Assembly (NCBI RefSeq): GCF_016858305.2
Contig: NZ_CP074436.1
Coordinates: 1,074,001-1,138,000 of the forward strand
Reading direction: 5' to 3'
Source of the DNA: Polaribacter sp. Q13
GTDB lineage: Bacteria; Bacteroidota; Bacteroidia; Flavobacteriales; Flavobacteriaceae
Length of the DNA stretch: 64,000 bases
Part shown: piece after piece, positions 2,865 through 35,589 of the stretch
Layout: each line of letters begins with the position of its first letter
How positions within the stretch are numbered: position 1 is the first letter of the stretch
Position numbers and translations under genes: made by a program
The notes under the pieces: model-generated
Database searches by the model: none
What the model was told of the DNA's origin: nothing
Seen by the model: only the letters and a program-made list of their open reading frames with translations

Positions 2865-3464
2865 TTATTTATGTCTTCCTATTAATTCTTTTTCAATATC
2901 TTTTAACGTAAACCCTTTTGCTTGTAACAACATTAAATAATGGAACATTAAATCTGCTGACTCATAGATAAATAATTCATCGTTATTGTCCATTGCCTCA
3001 ATAACAGTCTCCACTGCTTCCTCTCCTACTTTCTGAGCAACTTTGTTAATTCCTTTAGCAAATAAACTTGCTACATAAGATTTTTTAGTGTCTTTATTAG
3101 CTACTCTTTCTGTAATAACGTCTTCTAAAGTAGAAAAGAAACCATAATTAGATTTGTTTTCTTCTCCCCAACAAGTATCTGTTCCTTTATGACATGTTGG
3201 CCCATTCGGATTTACAGAAACCAACAAAGTATCATTGTCGCAATCTAGTTTTATATCTACTAAATTCAATACATTTCCGCTTTCTTCACCTTTTGTCCAA
3301 AGTCTATTTTTAGTTCTAGAAAAGAAAGTAACTAATTTTGTTTCTTGCGTTTTTGCAAACGCTTCTTCATTCATATACCCTAACATCAACACCTTTTTTG
3401 TGGTTACATCTTGAATGATTGCGGGTACTAATCCGTCGTTGTTTTTACTAAAATCGATATTCAT
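2865..3464 (-). CDS. hisIE: Bifunctional phosphoribosyl-AMP cyclohydrolase / phosphoribosyl-ATP pyrophosphatase
   Basis: This 199-residue protein catalyses steps 2 and 3 of histidine biosynthesis: hydrolysis of phosphoribosyl-ATP to phosphoribosyl-AMP, then opening of the adenine ring. The N-terminal HisI domain (about 1-105) has GYMNEEAF, WTKGEESGN, the metal-binding D-x-D-x-D stretch (LDCDND) and the Cys motif TCHKGTDTCW. The C-terminal HisE domain (about 110-195) has the helical KVGEEAVETVIEA motif. The fusion is normal for the phylum. It is the last gene of the minus-strand his operon, 89 bp after hisF; that gap holds a palindromic repeat. The length is typical for the fused enzyme. Confidence 0.95.
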   Translation of the reverse strand: MNIDFSKNNDGLVPAIIQDVTTKKVLMLGYMNEEAFAKTQETKLVTFFSRTKNRLWTKGEESGNVLNLVDIKLDCDNDTLLVSVNPNGPTCHKGTDTCWGEENKSNYGFFSTLEDVITERVANKDTKKSYVASLFAKGINKVAQKVGEEAVETVIEAMDNNDELFIYESADLMFHYLMLLQAKGFTLKDIEKELIGRHK

Positions 3465-28608: not shown

Positions 28609-29334
28609 ACTATAATTAATTTGAAAAAATAGCCGTTGTATAATTCTTACACAAAAACCATTTTAATTTAAACTTACAAACGCTTCGTTGCCATAACCAA
28701 GCCAAAATCAGGAATTTTAATGTCATTTTTTTTAATTAACCACATTTAAAAACAAGAAATAAAGCGCTATCTCTCTTATAGTAACCCACAACAAGGTTTC
28801 TACCTTTTTAATATTTGAAATGAACGTGTATTATTGAAACCGCAACTTTGTCAGTCTTTGTTAGAAATTTAGCAATTTTTATGACAAGTTTGTGCTTTAA
28901 AGAAGCTTTTCTTTTTGATTAAAGGGAGAAACCTTATAAAGTTACTTAGGTATATGTTATCTCGGTGATGGGTTTTCTCCTTACGTCGGATGATAAAGTT
29001 GGTGAGTTTATTTTACATTTTACGCAATACTTCTCGCACTGCTTGTCATTTTGACCAAAGGGAGAAATCACATAAGGATGAACCATTCTATGTTTTCACT
29101 GTTATGTGATTTCTCTTAAAATCGGATGATAAAACTGAGGTGTTTTTTAGGTTGATAATTAACAAATTACTGTTAATAAGTTAATCTCTATACACCTCAT
29201 ATAAATTGTACTTTTATCATGAACAATTCTTCCCTCATTTGCTATGAAAGAATTTCAAACTGAAAAACGAAATAACTACTCATATTACCCTGAAAAATTA
29301 GGATATGAGGAGTTAAGGTAAGGATATAAACAAG
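28609..29334. other. 700-bp intergenic region with repeats, left flank of the cassette array
   Basis: Two related hairpin repeats lie here: 28921-28996 (GGGAGAAACC...GGTTTTCTCC then CGGATGATAAA) and 29057-29134 (GAGAAATCACATAA...TTATGTGATTTCTC, 14-bp perfect arms, then CGGATGATAAA). They resemble interspersed repeats common in flavobacteria. The short frame at 29244-29321 is listed separately. No other gene is seen. Confidence 0.6.
29244..29321 (+). CDS. Possible 25-residue peptide left of the cassette array
   Basis: ATG at 29244 to TAA at 29321 encodes a 25-residue peptide rich in Glu, Tyr and Lys (…NYSYYPEKLGYEELR). It ends 13 bp before the G/TT boundary of the array. It may be a real small gene, the remnant of one, or a leader; nothing decisive is visible. 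Confidence 0.25.
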   Translation: MKEFQTEKRNNYSYYPEKLGYEELR

Positions 29335-29352
29335 TTGGGCTTAATTAAAAAA

Positions 29353-30666
29353 ATGAAAATAAGAAAAACTAATCAAGTATTTACACCATCCAAACCTTCA
29401 ACATTAATTTTCGTTGAAAGAGATAGGAAAATAAACAACCAACTCGTTGACGCACTAAATACACCTGGAAAACAAATTGTGGTTTTTGGTCATTCAGGTT
29501 GTGGAAAAACTACTTTAGTTCTTAATAAATTGAATCAAACTTATGAAAACTATATCATAACTCGATGTATGAAAGGAATGACATTTGAAAATGTAATTTT
29601 AGACGGCTTTGATCAATTAGATAATTTTTATGAGGAATCTTCTTCTTCAAAAGGTTTAAAAATAAATCCTAAAATTACTCTCCAATATAACGAGTTAAAA
29701 TCTTCAATTTCTTTATTCGAAATAAATAAATCTAAAACAAAGAACAACATATCAGTATTACCACCTCAATTAACACCACAAAGATTAGGTCATTTTTTTG
29801 GAGAATCTAATTCTTGTTGGGTTTTAGAAGATTTTCATAAAATAATAGGAGAAAATAAAACAAAAATCGCTCAATTAATGAAAGTTTTTATGGATATGTC
29901 CATAAATTATGATGAGTTAAAAATAATCGCAATTGGTGCAGTTTCAACAGCAAGACAAGTTGTAGAATATGATAATGAACTATCTGGAAGAGTAAGTGAG
30001 ATAAAGGTTCCGATTATGGATAATGATGAAATTGAGAAAATAATAAATAAAGGTGAAAAACTTTTAAATATTCATTTTTCAAAAGATACAAAAGAAAAAA
30101 TAATTAAATATTCTTGTGGTTCACCTACAATTTGTCATCAAATATGCCTTAACATTTGCTTTAATGAATTAGTTTATCAAACATCAAATAAGAAAATTTT
30201 CTTTGATACTACTCATTTAGATTTAGCCTTAGAAAAGTATTTAGAAGAAAAGACAGATACATTAACTTCAACATTTGATAAAGCAGTAAAAACTTCAAAT
30301 GGTTCAACTTTAAATTTGCCTAAAGAAATAATTAAACAAGCTTTAAACTTAAAGAAAGATTTTTTCAGCTTCGATGATTTAACAATCTCTAAATTAATAA
30401 GAGAAAATTCAGTTAAATCCGAAAAAATTATTAATGAATTATGTACTTTAAAAAGAGGAGAGTTTTTTACTTATGATGTTAATTCTAATAAGTATAGGTT
30501 TAATAACTTATTTCTAAAAAACTTTGCCTTTCTAACTTTTAAAGATGAGAAAGATGAATTAGATGTTGAACCAAAAAGAAAAGACTTCAAAGTAATAGAA
30601 AGACTTTTGAATATTATTGAAAATGACATTAATGAAGATTATGAATTTTATATTGAGAATTTATAA
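29353..30666 (+). CDS. P-loop ATPase, cassette 1
   Basis: The start is ATG 29353 (an upstream in-frame TTG lies in the cassette end and is less likely). The 437-residue protein has Walker A GHSGCGKTT (46-54), a Walker B-like strand CWVLED (155-160), a sensor-like strand IIAIGAVS (about 195) and a C-terminal winged-helix-like region (about 320-405). This is the layout of AAA+/STAND-type ATPases (Orc/Cdc6-like) of unknown function, often found in accessory DNA. No effector domain (nuclease, TIR, transmembrane) is visible. It is the only gene of the first cassette. A defence-related role is possible but not supported by the sequence itself. Confidence 0.75.
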   Translation: MKIRKTNQVFTPSKPSTLIFVERDRKINNQLVDALNTPGKQIVVFGHSGCGKTTLVLNKLNQTYENYIITRCMKGMTFENVILDGFDQLDNFYEESSSSKGLKINPKITLQYNELKSSISLFEINKSKTKNNISVLPPQLTPQRLGHFFGESNSCWVLEDFHKIIGENKTKIAQLMKVFMDMSINYDELKIIAIGAVSTARQVVEYDNELSGRVSEIKVPIMDNDEIEKIINKGEKLLNIHFSKDTKEKIIKYSCGSPTICHQICLNICFNELVYQTSNKKIFFDTTHLDLALEKYLEEKTDTLTSTFDKAVKTSNGSTLNLPKEIIKQALNLKKDFFSFDDLTISKLIRENSVKSEKIINELCTLKRGEFFTYDVNSNKYRFNNLFLKNFAFLTFKDEKDELDVEPKRKDFKVIERLLNIIENDINEDYEFYIENL

Positions 30667-30670
30667 AACT

Positions 30671-30805
30671 AAGCCCAACACCGTATAAACTTTATTGCTA
30701 GTTTTGGCTCACTTGGGAAATTCCTCCGGAATTTCGCCGTTCGTGTTTTATTTACTAAATTCACTGCTTAAACAACGCAACAAAGCTTATACAACAACGT
30801 TGTGT
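30671..30805 (+). repeat. attC-like site 1
   Basis: R'' AAGCCCAAC (30671-30679), outer arms TATAAACTTTATTGC (30684-30698) and GCAACAAAGCTTATA (30777-30791), a central hairpin GAAATTCC-TCC-GGAATTTC, and R' GTTGTGT (30799-30805). The two mismatches in the outer stem are A/C on the top strand and therefore G/T wobbles on the bottom strand. It belongs to the same subtype as site 4. Confidence 0.7.
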
Positions 30806-30872
30806 ACAATTCCACTCATGTACTTTCCTGAAATAGGTTGACTAAAAATTAAACATTTAATTATAGTCGCTT

Positions 30873-31331
30873 ATGAAAACTCAAAAACAACCCTGGCGAA
30901 AAAAAACGTACGAAAAAGCAACTTTAGAACTCAAATTATTCGTCGTTGACCAAATTCAGAATGGACAGATTTCCACAAACTTTGCTTCCAAAAAATATGA
31001 TGTTCCTAGAACTACAATTGGGTATTGGATCAAAAAATATAGTACTTTAGTCCAACAAAATACTGGTATGAGTAAATTAGATGAGATTAAAAAACTAAAG
31101 GAACGTATTGAAGAATTGGAGTTTGTAAAGGAATTTCAACAAGATATCATTGCTGACATGGAAATCATTACTGGAGTCGATTTGTCAAAAAAGTCGTTGC
31201 CCAAAACATTAGCGAAAGAGATAGAACTAAAAAAGAAAAACCGTTTAAAAGAAAATGGTTCTATGAGTGTTTTGGGATTAGTAAACAAGCTTTCTACAAA
31301 AGACTCAAAACCCAAGAAAACAAACGACTAA
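30873..31331 (+). CDS. IS3-family transposase OrfA
   Basis: This 152-residue protein has an N-terminal helix-turn-helix (about 8-55: KATLELKLFVVDQIQNGQISTNFASKKYDVPRTTIGYWIKKY) for binding the element ends, and a coiled coil (about 68-95: LDEIKKLKERIEELEFVKEFQQDIIADME). It is translated from 30873. At 31229-31235 the heptamer A AAA AAG lies in the correct phase for a -1 frameshift, after which reading continues in the orfB frame; without the shift OrfA ends at 31331. Confidence 0.88.
   Translation: MKTQKQPWRKKTYEKATLELKLFVVDQIQNGQISTNFASKKYDVPRTTIGYWIKKYSTLVQQNTGMSKLDEIKKLKERIEELEFVKEFQQDIIADMEIITGVDLSKKSLPKTLAKEIELKKKNRLKENGSMSVLGLVNKLSTKDSKPKKTND
31229..31235 (+). promoter_or_regulatory. 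Programmed -1 frameshift site of the IS3 element
   Basis: AAAAAAG is phased as A_AAA_AAG in the orfA frame. After slipping, the frame from 31235 continues without a stop into orfB, through a segment reading WFYECFGISKQAFYKR, the normal start of an IS3 OrfB domain. Confidence 0.85.
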
Positions 31332-31351
31332 ACGATGAAAAAGTCATCGAA

Positions 31352-32125
31352 ATGATACAGGAATATCGAAAACTAGTTGGCATGAGAACTGGCGGAATTA
31401 AGTTATATGATGAACTTAAACAAGACTTTATAAAACAAGGTATTAAAATCGGTAGAGACAAGTTGTACGATGTATTAAGGCTTCATAATTTACTTGTTCC
31501 TAAGCTTAAAAACTATGTAACAACAACAAATTCTAATCATCAATTTAGAAAATATAAAAACCTAATTAAAGACCAAGTTCCTACTCGACCAGAACAACTA
31601 TGGGTAAGCGATATAACATACATTAAAACGGACAATGGACACAATTACCTAGCAATCGTTACAGATGCATATTCTAAGCAAATTATGGGGTATAATCTCG
31701 ATAAGCATATGAAGACATCACTTTGTACAGAAGCGCTGGAAATGGCTATAAAAAATAGAAAATATCCTGATAAAAAATTAATACATCATTCTGACAGAGG
31801 TTTTCAATACTGTAACCCGAAATACACAGCCTTTGCAGAAGAAAATGGCATAATGATGAGCATGACAGAACAATATGATCCTTATGAAAACGCAATTGCA
31901 GAGCGAATTAATAGAACTTTAAAATATGAATACGGACTTAGAAATTACATTAAAAACACTGCCATTGCTCAAGAAGTAACAAAACAAGCAGTGTATATAT
32001 ACAACAATTTAAGAACGCATTATAGCCTAGATTTAAGAAAACCAGCTGAAGTACATTTAAATCCAAACATCAAATACAAATCATATCGAAGAAATAATGT
32101 AAATTTGACTGAACTAACAATTTAA
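31352..32125 (+). CDS. IS3-family transposase OrfB (DDE integrase core)
   Basis: The first ATG of this frame is at 31352, giving 257 residues, but the frame is open upstream to 31235 and the product is probably made as the OrfAB fusion by frameshifting. It has the HTH_21 segment (RTGGIKLYDELK), and the rve catalytic domain with DDE: Asp in WVSDITYI, Asp in HHSDRGFQY, Glu in NAIAERINRTLKYEYG. All three catalytic residues are present, so the element may be active. Confidence 0.9.
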   Translation: MIQEYRKLVGMRTGGIKLYDELKQDFIKQGIKIGRDKLYDVLRLHNLLVPKLKNYVTTTNSNHQFRKYKNLIKDQVPTRPEQLWVSDITYIKTDNGHNYLAIVTDAYSKQIMGYNLDKHMKTSLCTEALEMAIKNRKYPDKKLIHHSDRGFQYCNPKYTAFAEENGIMMSMTEQYDPYENAIAERINRTLKYEYGLRNYIKNTAIAQEVTKQAVYIYNNLRTHYSLDLRKPAEVHLNPNIKYKSYRRNNVNLTELTI

Positions 32126-32240
32126 AAACAAATCTAGTTCAAATTATTTTTTGCCTTCTAAACGGCTAAAAAAAGCTTTTGAACGGTAGAAATTAACCTA
32201 AAAAAAGGTCAACCTATATCAATATAATACAAATATAGCA

Positions 32241-32885
32241 ATGAAAAAAACTTTATTTATTGGATTATTAACTATTTTTCCATTAATATCATTTTCTCAA
32301 AATAAAAATATCGCTTTTGGAATAAAAGGTGGAATAAATTACTCAAATTACATTGATAATATTGATTCAAATTTATTTACTCATATACCTGCTGACTATA
32401 ATGGAAAAATAGGTTTCTATATTGGTGCGTACTCTAATATTGGAATCAATGAAATAATCTCAATAAAACCTGAATTATTAATTTCCAAAACTGGTAGTAA
32501 AGCAACTATTGAATTTAAAGATTTACGTACTATTTATACAGATCAAGACATAGTAGTTTATCGAGAAACAAAAGCGATAATAGATGAATATAATGTGTTA
32601 ATTCCAATTTTATTAAACCTTAATCTGAATAAATATTTTTTTGAAATTGGACCACAATTTGGATATGCTTTTAGTAGGAATATATCTTATAAAGATGGAC
32701 CAATTAATTCTCAACTGATTTTAAAAAACTCTAACTCTGAAAATTTTGAATTTGCTGGAGCAATTGGTTTTGGTTATAGAATATCTGAATTATATCAGAT
32801 TGACATTCGATATTCTTATGGATTTACAGAAAGACATCACTTGAATAGTTCTATTTTATATTTTGGGCTATCTTATAAACTCTAA
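32241..32885 (+). CDS. PorT-like outer-membrane beta-barrel protein, cassette 2
   Basis: This 214-residue protein has a signal peptide (1-19, ending SFS) and the pattern of small 8-strand barrels: FGIKGGINYSNYIDN, GKIGFYIGAYSNIGINEIISIKPELLISKTGS, FFEIGPQFGYAFS and a C-terminal SILYFGLSYKL. It is the gene of the second cassette, just before attC-like site 2. Between it and the previous site lies the IS3 element. The cassette start (GTTGTGTACAA) does not match its end (TTTGTAAC), so the gene probably belonged to a different cassette before an IS-linked deletion. Confidence 0.78.
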   Translation: MKKTLFIGLLTIFPLISFSQNKNIAFGIKGGINYSNYIDNIDSNLFTHIPADYNGKIGFYIGAYSNIGINEIISIKPELLISKTGSKATIEFKDLRTIYTDQDIVVYRETKAIIDEYNVLIPILLNLNLNKYFFEIGPQFGYAFSRNISYKDGPINSQLILKNSNSENFEFAGAIGFGYRISELYQIDIRYSYGFTERHHLNSSILYFGLSYKL

Positions 32886-32895
32886 TATAAAACTG

Positions 32896-33031
32896 TTTGT
32901 AACCACCGTATATAATTTATTGCTGGCTTCTCGCTTACTTACGAAAGTCCTCGCGGACTTTCTTGGTCGGTAATTATTTACTAAATTAGTTGCTTAAAAC
33001 ACGCAACAAATCATATATAAAAACGTTAGCT
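32896..33031 (+). repeat. attC-like site 2
   Basis: R'' TTTGTAAC (to 32903), outer arms TATATAATTTATTGC (32909-32923) and GCAACAAATCATATA (33003-33017) with two top-strand A/C mismatches, a central hairpin GAAAGTCC-TCGC-GGACTTTC, and R' GTTAGCT (33025-33031). Nearly identical to site 3 over the right-hand 95 bp. Confidence 0.7.
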
Positions 33032-33050
33032 ACAATTAAAAAAAAAGATT

Positions 33051-33512
33051 ATGATGATTAAATATCTGACATTTGGAATATCAATATCATTCATATCTTG
33101 GATAGTCGGAATGATTCTAAATATTATTCTTATGAAAACTGAATACTACAAAAAAATATCAAACCTGAATTTTATTGAGAGTAAAACTCTGAATAAAAAT
33201 ATTGGAATTGAATACTTTAAGTGGATTTTGAAAAATTCCTTTTTCAAATTTTTCAATCAGAAAATAGCTTTAAAAGATAAAAAAACGGATTTAAGAGATA
33301 TACGAAAAGAAATGACAATTGCCGAAATAGGTCATTTAATCGGATTTATATTCGTGACTGCTATCGCCCTTTACCAAGGGATTTCAAATAACTATTTATT
33401 TGGATTAACAATAATGATTCCGAATATTTTAATGAATTTATATCCTTCATTATTACAACAGGAAAACAAAAGACGAATCGATAGATTGATTAAAAGACAA
33501 ATAAAACTATAG
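33051..33512 (+). CDS. Small integral membrane protein, cassette 3
   Basis: This 153-residue protein has an N-terminal membrane helix (about 5-28: LTFGISISFISWIVGMILNIILM) and two further helices (about 95-140: IGHLIGFIFVTAIALYQGI, NYLFGLTIMIPNILMNLYP), with a basic connecting part. Its stop codon TAG (33510-33512) lies inside the R'' sequence TAGCTAAC, so gene and recombination site overlap. I do not recognise a family. The N-in/C-in arrangement with the QENKRRIDRLIKRQ tail recalls glycosyl-4,4'-diaponeurosporenoate acyltransferase-like small proteins, but this is weak. Confidence 0.6.
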   Translation: MMIKYLTFGISISFISWIVGMILNIILMKTEYYKKISNLNFIESKTLNKNIGIEYFKWILKNSFFKFFNQKIALKDKKTDLRDIRKEMTIAEIGHLIGFIFVTAIALYQGISNNYLFGLTIMIPNILMNLYPSLLQQENKRRIDRLIKRQIKL

Positions 33513-33644
33513 CTAACAACTGGTATATTTTATAGCTTGGTTTTAGCACACTTACGAAAATCCTCGCGGACTTTCTTGGTCGGTAATTATTTACTAAATT
33601 AGTTGCTTAAAACACGCAACAAATCATATATAAAAACGTTAGCA
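33511..33644 (+). repeat. attC-like site 3
   Basis: R'' AGCTAAC (33511-33517) and R' GTTAGCA (33638-33644). Central hairpin GAAAATCC-TCGC-GGACTTTC with one A/C top-strand mismatch. The right half equals that of site 2; the left arm (TGGTATATTTTATAGC) is more divergent. Confidence 0.65.
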
Positions 33645-33667
33645 GAAATTAAAAAAAAATTAGATAT

Positions 33668-33922
33668 ATGGAACACAAAATTTTATTAGAATGGAGTGAC
33701 GAAGAACTTTTACAGAAAATAAAAAATCTAAAATCAAGTAAAATAATTGATGCAACTCTTATTGGTTTAACAATTGGAATTTTCATCTATAGCGTTGTGA
33801 ATAATGGTTTTGGATTCTCTACTTTTTTCCCCTTAATAATTGGATACCTAATAATTAAAAGTTCTAAAAACAATAAAGTTTTAGAGAAAGAAATTCTGAA
33901 AGAAATAAAATATCGAAAATAA
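33668..33922 (+). CDS. Small membrane protein, cassette 4 first gene
   Basis: This 84-residue protein has a soluble start (MEHKILLEWSDEELLQKIKNLKSSK) and two adjacent membrane helices (about 28-46 and 49-66), then a basic tail. It ends 2 bp before the DUF3667 gene, so both form a two-gene cassette. Family unknown. Confidence 0.6.
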   Translation: MEHKILLEWSDEELLQKIKNLKSSKIIDATLIGLTIGIFIYSVVNNGFGFSTFFPLIIGYLIIKSSKNNKVLEKEILKEIKYRK

Positions 33923-33924
33923 AA

Positions 33925-34665
33925 ATGGATGCTAATTGCCAAAATTGTAATGAAATCATTAAAGGTAACTTTTGTGCTAATTGTGGACAAAAAACAAGTG
34001 TTCATAGATATTCATTCATACATTTTATAGAACACGATTTAATTAATGGAATTTGGAACGTTAACAATGGCGTTTTTTTTACAATTAGAGAACTATTTAT
34101 AAGACCAGGTCATAGTATAAGAGAGTTTATAAATGGAAAGAGAGTTAAGTACTTTAGTGTAATAACACTACTACTAATTATTCTTGCAGTCTCACATTTT
34201 GTTAGTGAATATTCTCAAGTAAGACTTTCGGATTTAATGCCTGAAAGTACTAAGGAGTCAATGAACGTTATTGAAGAATTTACAAAAGAACATCCTAAAT
34301 CCACGTTGTTATTAACTATCCCTTTTTATTCTATTTTTAGTTTTCTTTGGTTCAGAAAATCAAAACTAAATCTAACAGAACATTTTGTTTTAAATTCATA
34401 CAAAACTGTTGCGGAATTAATAATTGGATTGGCTTTTACAATATTAACTGTTTTTTATACAAGTCAAAAAGGGTTAATAACAGCTTATAGTCTTGTTTCA
34501 CTTTTTTCAATAATTTATTCATTTTGGTATTATAAACAATTCTTTTCAGATTATGGATATTCAAAAAAATCTTTAATAATTAGAAGTTTAGGTGTTATCT
34601 TTTCATATATGATCTTCTTTATGATACCGGGATTTGTTATGGGGATTATTAAAAGTGGAACATAA
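33925..34665 (+). CDS. DUF3667 membrane protein with zinc ribbon, cassette 4 second gene
   Basis: This 246-residue protein starts with a zinc ribbon, CQNCNEIIKGNFCANCGQK (four Cys at about 5-22), followed by a juxtamembrane part (FIEHDLINGIWNVNNGVFFTIRELFIRPGHSIREFINGKRVKYFSVITL), which is the DUF3667 signature, and about five membrane helices (about 70-90, 125-140, 160-180, 185-205, 215-240). Function unknown. It is the last gene before attC-like site 4; R'' TTCTGCTAAC starts 5 bp after its stop codon. Confidence 0.82.
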   Translation: MDANCQNCNEIIKGNFCANCGQKTSVHRYSFIHFIEHDLINGIWNVNNGVFFTIRELFIRPGHSIREFINGKRVKYFSVITLLLIILAVSHFVSEYSQVRLSDLMPESTKESMNVIEEFTKEHPKSTLLLTIPFYSIFSFLWFRKSKLNLTEHFVLNSYKTVAELIIGLAFTILTVFYTSQKGLITAYSLVSLFSIIYSFWYYKQFFSDYGYSKKSLIIRSLGVIFSYMIFFMIPGFVMGIIKSGT

Positions 34666-34673
34666 ATAACTTC

Positions 34674-34806
34674 TGCTAACACCGTATAAACTTTATTGCT
34701 GGTTTTAGCTCACTTGGGAAATTCCTGCGGAATTTCGCAGTTCTTGTTTTATTTACTAAATTCACTGCTTAAACAACGCAACAAAGCTTACACAACAACG
34801 TTTGAA
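34674..34806 (+). repeat. attC-like site 4 (right end of array)
   Basis: R'' TGCTAAC (34674-34680), arms TATAAACTTTATTGC (34685-34699) and GCAACAAAGCTTACA (34778-34792) with three top-strand A/C mismatches, central hairpin GAAATTCC-TGC-GGAATTTC, and GTTTGAA (34800-34806), which already belongs to the chromosomal flank. Near-identical to site 1. Confidence 0.7.
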
Positions 34807-34826
34807 AAGCAAAACCACCACCCAAA

Positions 34827-35171
34827 ATGCCAACAAAAATCATAGACATTAACGAAGCTACTATAAAAAGTTATGTAGAATCATTAAGACCGGAAGATTT
34901 AGAAATTAGAAAACAAGTAGATATTGGATACCTTTATAAGGCAAATGTTGTATGTTTATTTGAAATAAGACCAAATTGGCAAAACCCAGAAGAAAAACAA
35001 AAAATAGAATTTGCAAGAATTAGACATTATAAGACCAAAAAAACATGGAAACTCTATTGGATGCGAGCAAGCGGAAAATGGGAACTTTATGAACCGTTTC
35101 CAGAATCTACACATATAGGGAAAATCATAGAGATTATAAAAGAAGATAAACACGGTTGCTTTTATGGATAA
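34827..35171 (+). CDS. DUF3024 family protein
   Basis: This 114-residue protein matches the DUF3024 pattern: a YLYKANVVCLFEIRPNWQNPEEKQKIEFARIRHYKTKKTWKLYWMRASGKWELYEPFP core of alternating strands with conserved W-K-L-Y-W-x-R and W-x-x-Y. Function unknown; genes of this kind often accompany sbcCD or repair genes. Its 5' leader was interrupted by the cassette array, whose right boundary is 27 bp before the ATG. Its end overlaps the UPF0158 gene by 8 bp. Confidence 0.8.
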   Translation: MPTKIIDINEATIKSYVESLRPEDLEIRKQVDIGYLYKANVVCLFEIRPNWQNPEEKQKIEFARIRHYKTKKTWKLYWMRASGKWELYEPFPESTHIGKIIEIIKEDKHGCFYG

Positions 35172-35589
35172 AACAAAACAACACATAATTAAAGAAATTG
35201 CACAAGATTTAGATTGTGGATATGAATGCTATTATAACTTTAAAACGCATGAAATTATAGCTATTCCAGATTTTTCACAAGTTTTTGACGAAGAAGAATT
35301 TAAAGAGGCTTTTGGTGAAACTTTGAAAAAAGTTAAACAACATAAAGCCGATTTCCTAAAAATTGAACCCTTAGAAAGTTTCGACTCTTTTAAAATAATG
35401 GAACATTTTGTAGCACAATTAACTGACCAAAATTTTAAATTGGAATTGGAAGCTGTTTTACAAAGAAAAAAACCATTTCAGAATTTTAAACATCAAATAG
35501 AACAATCTAATTTTAGACAAGATTGGTTTGATTTTAAACAACTCGAACTAGAAAAAATAGTTGCTAAAATATTAAGTTTAAGAAAATGA
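35164..35589 (+). CDS. UPF0158 family protein
   Basis: This 141-residue acidic protein (KEIAQDLDCGYECYYNFKTHEIIAIPDF, IEPLESFDSFKIMEHFVAQL, FNFK…RQDWFDFKQLEL) matches the UPF0158 family, whose role is unknown. It overlaps DUF3024 upstream by 8 bp and sbcD downstream by 4 bp (ATGA), so the four genes form one translationally coupled operon. Confidence 0.82.
   Translation: MDKTKQHIIKEIAQDLDCGYECYYNFKTHEIIAIPDFSQVFDEEEFKEAFGETLKKVKQHKADFLKIEPLESFDSFKIMEHFVAQLTDQNFKLELEAVLQRKKPFQNFKHQIEQSNFRQDWFDFKQLELEKIVAKILSLRK

What the first reader, a model, noticed from the sequence alone, without database searches (positions are those of the whole stretch)
29335..34806. Integron-like gene-cassette array in a flavobacterium, no integrase in view
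Five plus-strand cassette genes (excluding the IS genes) are separated by four related sites of 133, 134, 135 and 136 bp. Each site has an RYYYAAC-like left box, a long imperfect outer stem, an inner hairpin and a GTT-starting right box. The size, orientation with the genes, G/TT boundaries and unrelated cargo (ATPase, porin-like protein, membrane proteins, DUF3667) match mobile gene cassettes. Clusters of attC sites without integrase are known in general; I cannot establish whether this flavobacterial site family has been described. It is the strongest candidate for a new system in the window.
Basis: partly seen in the sequence, partly recalled or inferred. Interest (0 to 1): 0.92.

Follow-up and report, generated by a model that had tools for sequence, protein, structure and literature searches.

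The report
Flavobacterial gene-cassette array without classical integrase
This DNA holds a row of swappable gene cassettes of the kind bacteria keep in integrons, but in related bacteria the enzyme beside such rows lacks the part that marks known integron enzymes, which hints at a gene-capture system that searches for classical integrons would miss.

Summary
Four related sites separate cassettes at 29335-34800 with G^TT boundaries. Cassettes 1, 3 and 4 begin with the reverse complement of their own end, the rule for attC-bearing circles; cassette 2, which carries an IS, does not. The genome holds at least 65 such sites. Over 56 cassettes own start and own end match at 6.5 of 7 bases against 2.9 shuffled, and the bottom strand folds better in 56 of 56. 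209 of 249 family genomes match the site model; none has IntI above NCBI's cut-off. In relatives a tyrosine recombinase related to XerA and IntI, without IntI's insertion, precedes the arrays, followed by an attI-like box. That box marks the window array's left edge without a recombinase; a decayed recombinase end plus the same box precedes the 20-site array. One congener has no cassettes here, another has different ones. Best reading: an integron-type platform run by a non-IntI recombinase, orphaned here. Strict integron membership fails on the IntI domain. Recombination is inferred, not shown. I found no description in the open-access papers searched.

The parts
29325..29336 (+). attI-like box TATAAACAAG^TT; crossover between 29334 and 29335
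   Evidence: Exact start of cassette 1 (7 of 7); same 12-mer before the 20-site array at 1458685-1458696 and before first cassettes of recombinase loci L138, L139, L141, L143, L149, L154; 6 copies in the genome against 5 for the reversed control.
29335..30799 (+). Cassette 1 (AAA ATPase gene 29335-30666)
   Evidence: Start GTTGGGCTTA and own end TAAGCCCAAC are perfect complements; ATPase_2 PF01637.
30676..30802 (+). attC-like site 1 (core YAAC to GTTR)
   Evidence: Profile hit 116 bits; bottom strand folds at -20.9 against -16.8 kcal/mol for the top strand.
30800..33025 (+). Cassette 2 (IS plus outer-membrane beta-barrel gene 32241-32885); hybrid
   Evidence: Start GTTGTGTACA and end do not match (run of 3); PF13568.
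30828..32221 (+). IS3-like element (two transposase genes 30873-31331 and 31352-32125) inside cassette 2
   Evidence: rve and HTH matches; left end 29-30 nt after the crossover in 11 of 11 copies. Outer ends estimated by comparison.
32900..33028 (+). attC-like site 2
   Evidence: Profile hit 114 bits; -18.0 bottom against -11.7 top.
33026..33638 (+). Cassette 3 (CrtO-like gene 33051-33512)
   Evidence: 8-base own-end match; full cassette at 79% in another genus, L126.
33514..33641 (+). attC-like site 3
   Evidence: Profile hit 101 bits; -14.0 bottom against -11.9 top.
33639..34800 (+). Cassette 4 (84-aa ORF 33668-33922 and DUF3667 gene 33925-34665)
   Evidence: 10-base own-end match; PF12412.
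34677..34803 (+). attC-like site 4, last detected site
   Evidence: Profile hit 114 bits; -17.7 bottom against -15.8 top.
34801..35589 (+). Possible further cassette without a detected 3' site: DUF3024 (34827-35171) and UPF0158 (35164-35589) genes
   Evidence: PF11225 and PF03682; DUF3024 lies between two sites at three array places in congener G834 (L178 9839; L179 7611 and 11913).

Best explanation
The region is a small mobile gene-cassette array sitting in an attI-like site, part of an integron-like system found across the window's family. Inferred mechanism: a tyrosine recombinase related to XerA and IntI, but without IntI's specific insertion, takes the bottom strand of a cassette circle, folded into a long hairpin whose outer stem is the cassette's own end paired with its own start, and joins it at G^TT to the attI box next to its gene. 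Repeated capture builds the array; site-by-site reactions excise, reorder and spread cassettes. In this genome no intact enzyme of this group was found: the window locus has the attI box alone, and only a decayed 3' end stands before the 20-site array, so the window array now changes only with outside help or by homologous recombination. Shown by sequence: sites, boundaries, own-end rule, fold bias, attI box, recombinase adjacency in relatives, different cassettes at one locus. Inferred: that this recombinase does the reaction, and does it on single-stranded DNA.
For: Own-end rule: 6.46 of 7 against 2.93 shuffled (max 3.66 of 2000) in 56 own cassettes; 4.70 of 6 against 2.07 (max 2.38 of 1000) in 161 cassettes of 33 other loci, with 122 of 161 at 5 or more against 9 of 161 for the neighbouring arm. 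Stem covariation: 11 of 15 pairs with changes on both sides. Bottom strand better in 56 of 56 and 158 of 161; circle form better than integrated form. Recombinase adjacency: 24 of 40 loci picked by recombinase match alone hold detected sites; in 23 of 24 the nearest ones lie on the gene's 3' side in its orientation. attI core within 160 bp after the stop codon in 27 of 29 clade A loci against 304 of 20000 random windows. Presence of a strong recombinase match goes with sites, 146 of 209 against 8 of 40. Turnover at this locus and exact cassette units elsewhere. Decayed recombinase end, attI box and array in that order in the own genome.
Against: No recombination was observed. 63 of 209 site-bearing genomes have no strong recombinase match, 8 genomes have the match without detected sites, and 9 of 40 loci have 6-10 kb after the gene and no detected site. 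Of the own genome's site clusters only the window array and the 20-site array start at the attI-like 12-mer; the 29-site array and the others do not show it, and one single cassette (start 1841115, 7 of 7) follows an unrelated sequence. Cassette 2 of the window breaks the own-end rule. Kinship was not corrected for in the Fisher test. The recombinases fall in several clades, a few of them short and without the N-terminal domain.
Confidence: 0.82

Rival explanations
1. Ordinary integron remnant (CALIN): the sites are classical attC sites served by an IntI that was lost from this family or acts in other bacteria; the neighbouring XerA/IntI-like recombinases are bystanders.
For: Size, bottom-strand folding, G^TT and cassette logic are attC-like; the window and own genome lack an intact enzyme of the neighbouring group; true IntI exists in the phylum (105 of 395), once within the class (G283), whose genome also has one weak site match.
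Against: 0 of 249 family genomes have IntI over the cut-off although 209 carry sites; the non-IntI recombinase stands at the array start with an attI box in unrelated genera.
Confidence: 0.08
2. Host XerC/XerD (chromosome dimer resolution enzymes) move the cassettes, as in Xer-exploiting elements, and the neighbouring recombinase only helps or is unrelated.
For: The own genome keeps a Xer pair at 76 and 1,824 kb and 65 sites without any intact platform recombinase found; Xer is close in sequence to the platform group.
Against: No site was detected in the 13-kb stretches around the two Xer genes; the attI box and array start sit at the other recombinase. A dif-like core in the sites was not looked for.
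Confidence: 0.06
3. The sites are a spreading intergenic repeat (transposed by another enzyme) that happens to lie between genes.
For: Many copies, several sub-families, some single copies outside arrays; sites 2 and 3 share a 3' half, which looks like exchange within sites.
Against: Transposed repeats would not make the first ten bases of each unit complementary to that unit's own last ten; no place for attI and the adjacent recombinase.
Confidence: 0.02

Closest known systems
Sedentary chromosomal integrons (IntI + attI + attC array)
   Same: Array of one-gene cassettes in one orientation, G^TT crossover, own-end rule, folded bottom-strand site, attI box beside a tyrosine recombinase gene, arrays of up to 29 sites.
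   Different: Recombinase has no IntI-specific insertion (box I-II spacing 91-92 against 133 aa), most have an extra N-terminal domain, 38 of 41 site-bearing recombinase loci have gene and array in the same direction; site arms follow GTTR + free own-matched bases, not GTTRRRY.
CALIN (clusters of attC sites lacking integron integrases)
   Same: Sites less than 4 kb apart without an integrase in the window; also the state of this genome.
   Different: Relatives show a complete platform with a different recombinase; not tested with the standard attC models.
XerA/XerC/XerD recombinases (NF040815, PDB 5hxy, 4a8e)
   Different: Stand at cassette arrays beside an attI box; most carry an extra N-terminal domain; archaeal XerA and Xer are chromosome-resolution enzymes (recalled).
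HARP / XPB / UvsW N-terminal domains (branched-DNA binding, recalled)

Membership tests
Integron (strict sense) | IntI with the IntI-specific additional domain (I2 / patch III region) | tested here: not met
   Platform recombinases of relatives: box I-II spacing 91-92 aa in the 53 measured of 55, against 133 in 18 of 18 IntI recovered; alignment to IntI4 misses residues 182-245. Window and own genome: no intact gene found.
Integron (strict sense) | Integrase above the curated TIGR02249 cut-off | tested here: not met
   0 of 249 family genomes.
Integron (strict sense) | Tandem cassettes, each with a recombination site and G^TT boundary, start complementary to own end | tested here: met
   in the window cassettes 1, 3 and 4, not cassette 2.
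Integron (strict sense) | Site folds as single strand with a preferred bottom strand | tested here: met
   By computed DNA folding only: 56 of 56 and 158 of 161.
Integron (strict sense) | RYYYAAC / GTTRRRY core consensus (recalled) | tested here: not met
   Base 4 is a purine in 56 of 56 and 158 of 161 starts, but bases 5-6 are often C or T.
Integron (strict sense) | attI next to the integrase gene | tested here: met
   In relatives; in the window only the box, without the gene.
Integron (strict sense) | Extrahelical bases in the folded site | not tested
   Not examined.
Integron (strict sense) | Integrase-catalysed attI x attC recombination | not testable with these tools
   Needs experiment.
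CALIN | At least two attC sites less than 4 kb apart without intI | tested here: met
   Four sites within 4.1 kb, no integrase found, provided the sites count as attC.
CALIN | Sites recognised by standard attC models | not testable with these tools
   Those models are not held; Rfam gave nothing.
XerA/XerC/D family (recombinase of relatives) | Sequence and fold match without IntI insertion | tested here: met
HARP domain | Significant sequence or fold match | tested here: inconclusive
   1 of 14 members, under Pfam's cut-off; profile E 0.11 to 4o66, behind two unrelated chains; Foldseek E 0.09.

The most novel reading that the evidence does not exclude
A second kind of integron: a XerA-like recombinase without the IntI-specific I2 domain recombines folded single-stranded cassette sites, perhaps by way of an N-terminal fork-binding (HARP/XPB/UvsW-like) domain, with strand choice written in G.T wobble positions. 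It would be either an independent invention of the integron or a relative of the stage before IntI gained I2, and the main gene-capture platform of a common marine bacterial family.
Probability: 0.45. Interest if true: 0.95.

Novelty: new variant of a known kind. Interest (0 to 1): 0.91.

Why it matters
Reviews list Bacteroidota among phyla with integrons (PMC8618304, PMC9668308, passages), but IntegronFinder 2.0 had earlier found only In0 elements in Bacteroidetes and now names one complete integron there, in Salinibacter, beside those of Chlorobi and Ignavibacteriae (PMC9024848, passages); an intI survey selected hits by the additional domain or patch (PMC2426708, passages). Here 209 of 249 genomes of one family match the cassette-site model. 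If the adjacent recombinase works the sites, the view that the I2 domain is what lets an integrase use folded single strands, and the proposal that a Xer-like ancestor became IntI by gaining it (PMC4792948, passages), become directly testable, and a large mobile gene pool with likely defence genes comes into view.

Tried and rejected
Rejected: (a) chance repeats. (b) An IntI elsewhere in the genome: TIGR02249 matches only two Xer-like genes and a 462-aa recombinase, all far under cut-off; PF00589 adds two more recombinases, 434 and 412 aa, at 3,018 and 1,729 kb, which I did not study further. (c) The 459/462-aa recombinase at 1,453-1,455 kb, a few kb before the 20-site array, as the cassette enzyme: best match to the platform group is 24% over 172 aa, E 8.7e-5, and the decayed platform gene lies between it and the array. 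(d) Rfam: nothing over a gathering score. (e) Phage collection: no match to site 4; plasmid collection: 2 records, both Tenacibaculum finnmarkense, 6 places. (f) A recombinase remnant at the window locus: best tblastn matches E 0.28 and worse.

Limits and slips: the site profile and model R1 were trained on the own genome and miss divergent sites; R1 searches scored at most 13 or 17 candidates per genome, so presence is counted, not copy number, and some genomes have one weak match only. A regex of mine for the attI core was mistyped and one for the catalytic tyrosine was too narrow; both were redone. My notebook says 12 of 20 clade A loci with sites; the recount is 11 of 20, and 13 of 20 for the second tier. 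The first 16 of the 20 loci were chosen because a site was near, so they are left out of the 23-of-24 count. In one search two of 56 cassettes with imperfect boxes (run 0) were kept. In one search hits spanning under about 110 model positions, near locus ends, or without YAAC and CGTT were dropped before the 216 sites. In one search one of 55 recombinases (L152, no box found) was left out of the tree, and 18 of 20 IntI loci gave a protein. In I scanned 39 of the 47 ORFs listed. VIA-align for the N-terminal model shows no HARP row among its 50.

I found no description in print (listings; open-access PMC only, no preprints). Papers were seen as passages only.
Full report
CHECK OF THE OBSERVATION. 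The four sites, gene order and orientation are as described. Cores from YAAC to GTTR are 30676-30802, 32900-33028, 33514-33641 and 34677-34803. Site 4 as a query finds 40 scored copies (71 candidates) in the same complete 4.42-Mb genome; an iterated profile over the stretches I fetched lists 65: 20 at 1,459-1,477 kb, 29 at 1,512-1,538 kb, 4 at 1,427-1,430 kb, 4 in the window, 4 at 2,932-2,939 kb and 4 singles. Within each of these arrays all sites point one way, and in 45 of 56 cassettes the longest ORF reads with the site (3 against, 8 without an ORF of 40 aa).

CASSETTE RULE. If a cassette was ever a circle closed at G^TT, its first and last bases once formed the two arms of one site. In the window cassette 1 starts GTTGGGCTTA and ends TAAGCCCAAC (7 of 7); cassettes 3 and 4 match over 8 and 10 bases; cassette 2, which carries an IS, does not match (run of 3). 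Over 56 cassettes of the genome, positions 4-10 match the own end in 6.46 of 7, the other arm of the same integrated site in 3.04, and shuffled ends in 2.93 (maximum 3.66 in 2000 shuffles). Over 161 cassettes from 33 loci of other genomes the figures for positions 5-10 are 4.70, 2.20 and 2.07 of 6 (maximum 2.38 in 1000). The bases themselves are free: GTT, a purine at base 4 (56 of 56; 158 of 161) and A at base 11 are fixed or nearly so. This is covariation across the length of a gene; I know of no repeat-spreading process that yields it.

FOLD AND STRAND. Bottom strands of the four window sites fold better than top strands. In 61 aligned sites RNAalifold finds a 15-pair stem; 11 pairs show changes on both sides with pairing kept, and three pairs are mostly G.U (58, 45 and 60 of 61), which on the other strand would be A.C mismatches. 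Modelled circle sites fold better on the bottom strand in 56 of 56 (mean -25.5 against -20.6 kcal/mol) and better than the integrated junctions (-20.5), and in 158 of 161 elsewhere. Base 11 is A in 56 of 56 and 161 of 161 starts and faces C in 49 of 56 and 132 of 161 own ends: a mismatch on the top strand, a G.T wobble on the bottom one. That strand choice is written in wobble pairs is inference.

DISTRIBUTION. With a covariance model of the sites, 209 of 249 genomes of the window's family match at E 0.001 or better, against 13 of 198 in a class-wide draw, 3 of which are the own genome, its congener and another family member. That the family is Flavobacteriaceae is inferred from named records: an exact site pattern hits Polaribacter, Tenacibaculum, Winogradskyella, Lacinutrix, Nonlabens, Olleya, Bizionia, Zobellia, Kordia and others (80 loci listed of at least 120). 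The genus of the window was not determined.

THE RECOMBINASE. None of the 249 genomes has an IntI over NCBI's cut-off, whereas 105 of 395 genomes in a phylum-wide draw do; of the listed matches all but one (G283) are marked as outside the class. The sub-threshold hits pointed to a group of tyrosine recombinases, mostly 368-417 aa, beside arrays. To test this without picking by adjacency I took 40 loci by recombinase match alone: 24 hold detected sites; in 23 of them the nearest sites (up to four shown) lie on the 3' side of the gene in the same orientation, and in one (L155) the array is divergent. Of the other 16, seven have under 1.8 kb of sequence after the gene and nine have 6-10 kb without a detected site. 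Counting also the 17 site-bearing loci, 38 of 41 are co-directional; the three divergent ones (L102, L107, L155) have recombinases of 277-279 aa, too short for the N-terminal domain. A strong recombinase match goes with sites: 146 of 209 against 8 of 40 (Fisher p 5e-9, not corrected for kinship).

ATTI. In 25 of 37 rows the first cassette starts 26-130 bp after the recombinase stop codon, found by its match to its own end (5-7 of 7). Just before it stands a conserved box: TATAA[CT]NNGTT within 160 bp of the stop in 27 of 29 clade A loci, against 304 of 20000 random windows; TATAAACAAG^TT in six of the 26 others (L138, L139, L141, L143, L149, L154); a ...CAATTG^TT form in several of the 375-aa clade (L100, L145, L148). 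The window's left edge, 29325-29336, is TATAAACAAG^TT, exactly at the crossover of cassette 1. The same 12-mer, with 6 copies in the genome (5 for the reversed control), precedes the first cassette of the 20-site array at 1,458,694 (6 of 7). About 120 bp before that lies a decayed recombinase end in two reading frames with an internal stop, most like L149 and L139, whose attI is this very box. So the own platform has lost its enzyme, and the window array is a second attI copy without one. The remaining site clusters of the genome, the 29-site array included, show no such start; one single cassette (start 1,841,115, 7 of 7) follows an unrelated sequence and may be an insertion outside attI.

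TURNOVER. At the window locus (FKBP-type gene on one side, DUF3024 on the other) congener G830 has 588 bp and no cassette, only a half-decayed site; G833 keeps the same attI box and holds different cassettes. G834 carries DUF3024 between sites at three array places. Exact cassette units recur: 397 bp at 100% in both large own arrays, 349 bp at 100% twice, 539 bp at 91-92% at two array places in G834 with both ends at the cassette boundary, and window cassette 3 in full in another genus (79%).

CARGO. Window: ATPase, outer-membrane barrel, CrtO-like, DUF3667. Own arrays (39 ORFs scanned, each listed family in one ORF): Fic, PRTase-CE, caspase, NACHT, Schlafen AlbA, ABC transporter and others; PADLOC names SoFic, PRTase_III-A, caspase and candidate defence models.

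LITERATURE (passages only). IntegronFinder 2.0 reports In0 elements earlier and now one complete integron (Salinibacter) for Bacteroidetes (PMC9024848). The archaeal integron paper calls the IntI-specific domain necessary for integron recombination and lists Bacteroidota among phyla with integrons (PMC9668308). A study of ancestral activity says the I2 domain has not been identified elsewhere and imagines its gain by a Xer-like ancestor (PMC4792948). The 11 taxon-specific attC models contain no Bacteroidetes (PMC8352920). A Polaribacter phage carries attC sites, one of them shown to recombine with IntI1 (PMC9892861); site 4 has no match in the phage collection, so those sites are of another type or too diverged.

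VERDICT. It works like an integron by the footprints that sequence can show, but the recombinase beside such arrays lacks the defining IntI domain, so I do not file it as an integron in the strict sense; it is a new variant of a known kind. Whether it is an independent invention, a pre-I2 relative, or a derivative that lost I2 cannot be told from this tree.

Noticed in passing
window 30828-32221; also L101, L108, L111 (two), L128, L210, L230, L246, L263, L274: An IS3-like element whose left end lies 29 or 30 nt after a cassette crossover, in the same orientation, in 11 of 11 copies found in the fetched loci, although the cassette starts differ. It looks like an IS that targets the flank of the cassette sites; the loci were fetched for sites or recombinases, so copies elsewhere are not excluded.
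   Followed up: partly
window 30800-33025: Cassette 2 has a start and an end that do not match; recombination between two IS-bearing cassettes would explain it.
   Followed up: no
window 28905-29148; L181 7247-7720: A 136-bp spaced intergenic repeat with inverted parts (GGGAGAAATC...GATTTCTC), two copies beside the array and more in congener G833.
   Followed up: no
own genome 1,453.5-1,458.6 kb (L037 15450 to L038 571): A block with a 459-aa tyrosine recombinase and a RecA-like ATPase gene sits just before the decayed platform recombinase; its arrival may have caused the loss.
   Followed up: partly
L127, L146, L147, L156: First detected cassettes follow another kind of junction (CCGTAACNGACGGTTATACGAGACC^GTT and the like), which suggests further site families that the own-genome profile misses.
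   Followed up: no
L102, L107, L155: Short recombinases (277-279 aa, no room for the N-terminal domain) read divergently from their arrays, unlike the other 38 of 41 loci.
   Followed up: partly
own arrays L036, L038, L040, L041, L044: Cargo includes likely defence genes: SoFic, PRTase_III-A, caspase, NACHT and Schlafen-type ORFs.
   Followed up: partly
plasmids CP116298.1 and CP116296.1 (Tenacibaculum finnmarkense): Two plasmid records hold 4 and 2 places similar to site 4, so the cassettes can ride on plasmids.
   Followed up: no
G283, C40:3592-4530 and C59:17775-17890: The one genome of the class with an IntI over the cut-off also has one weak match to the flavobacterial site model, on another contig.
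   Followed up: no
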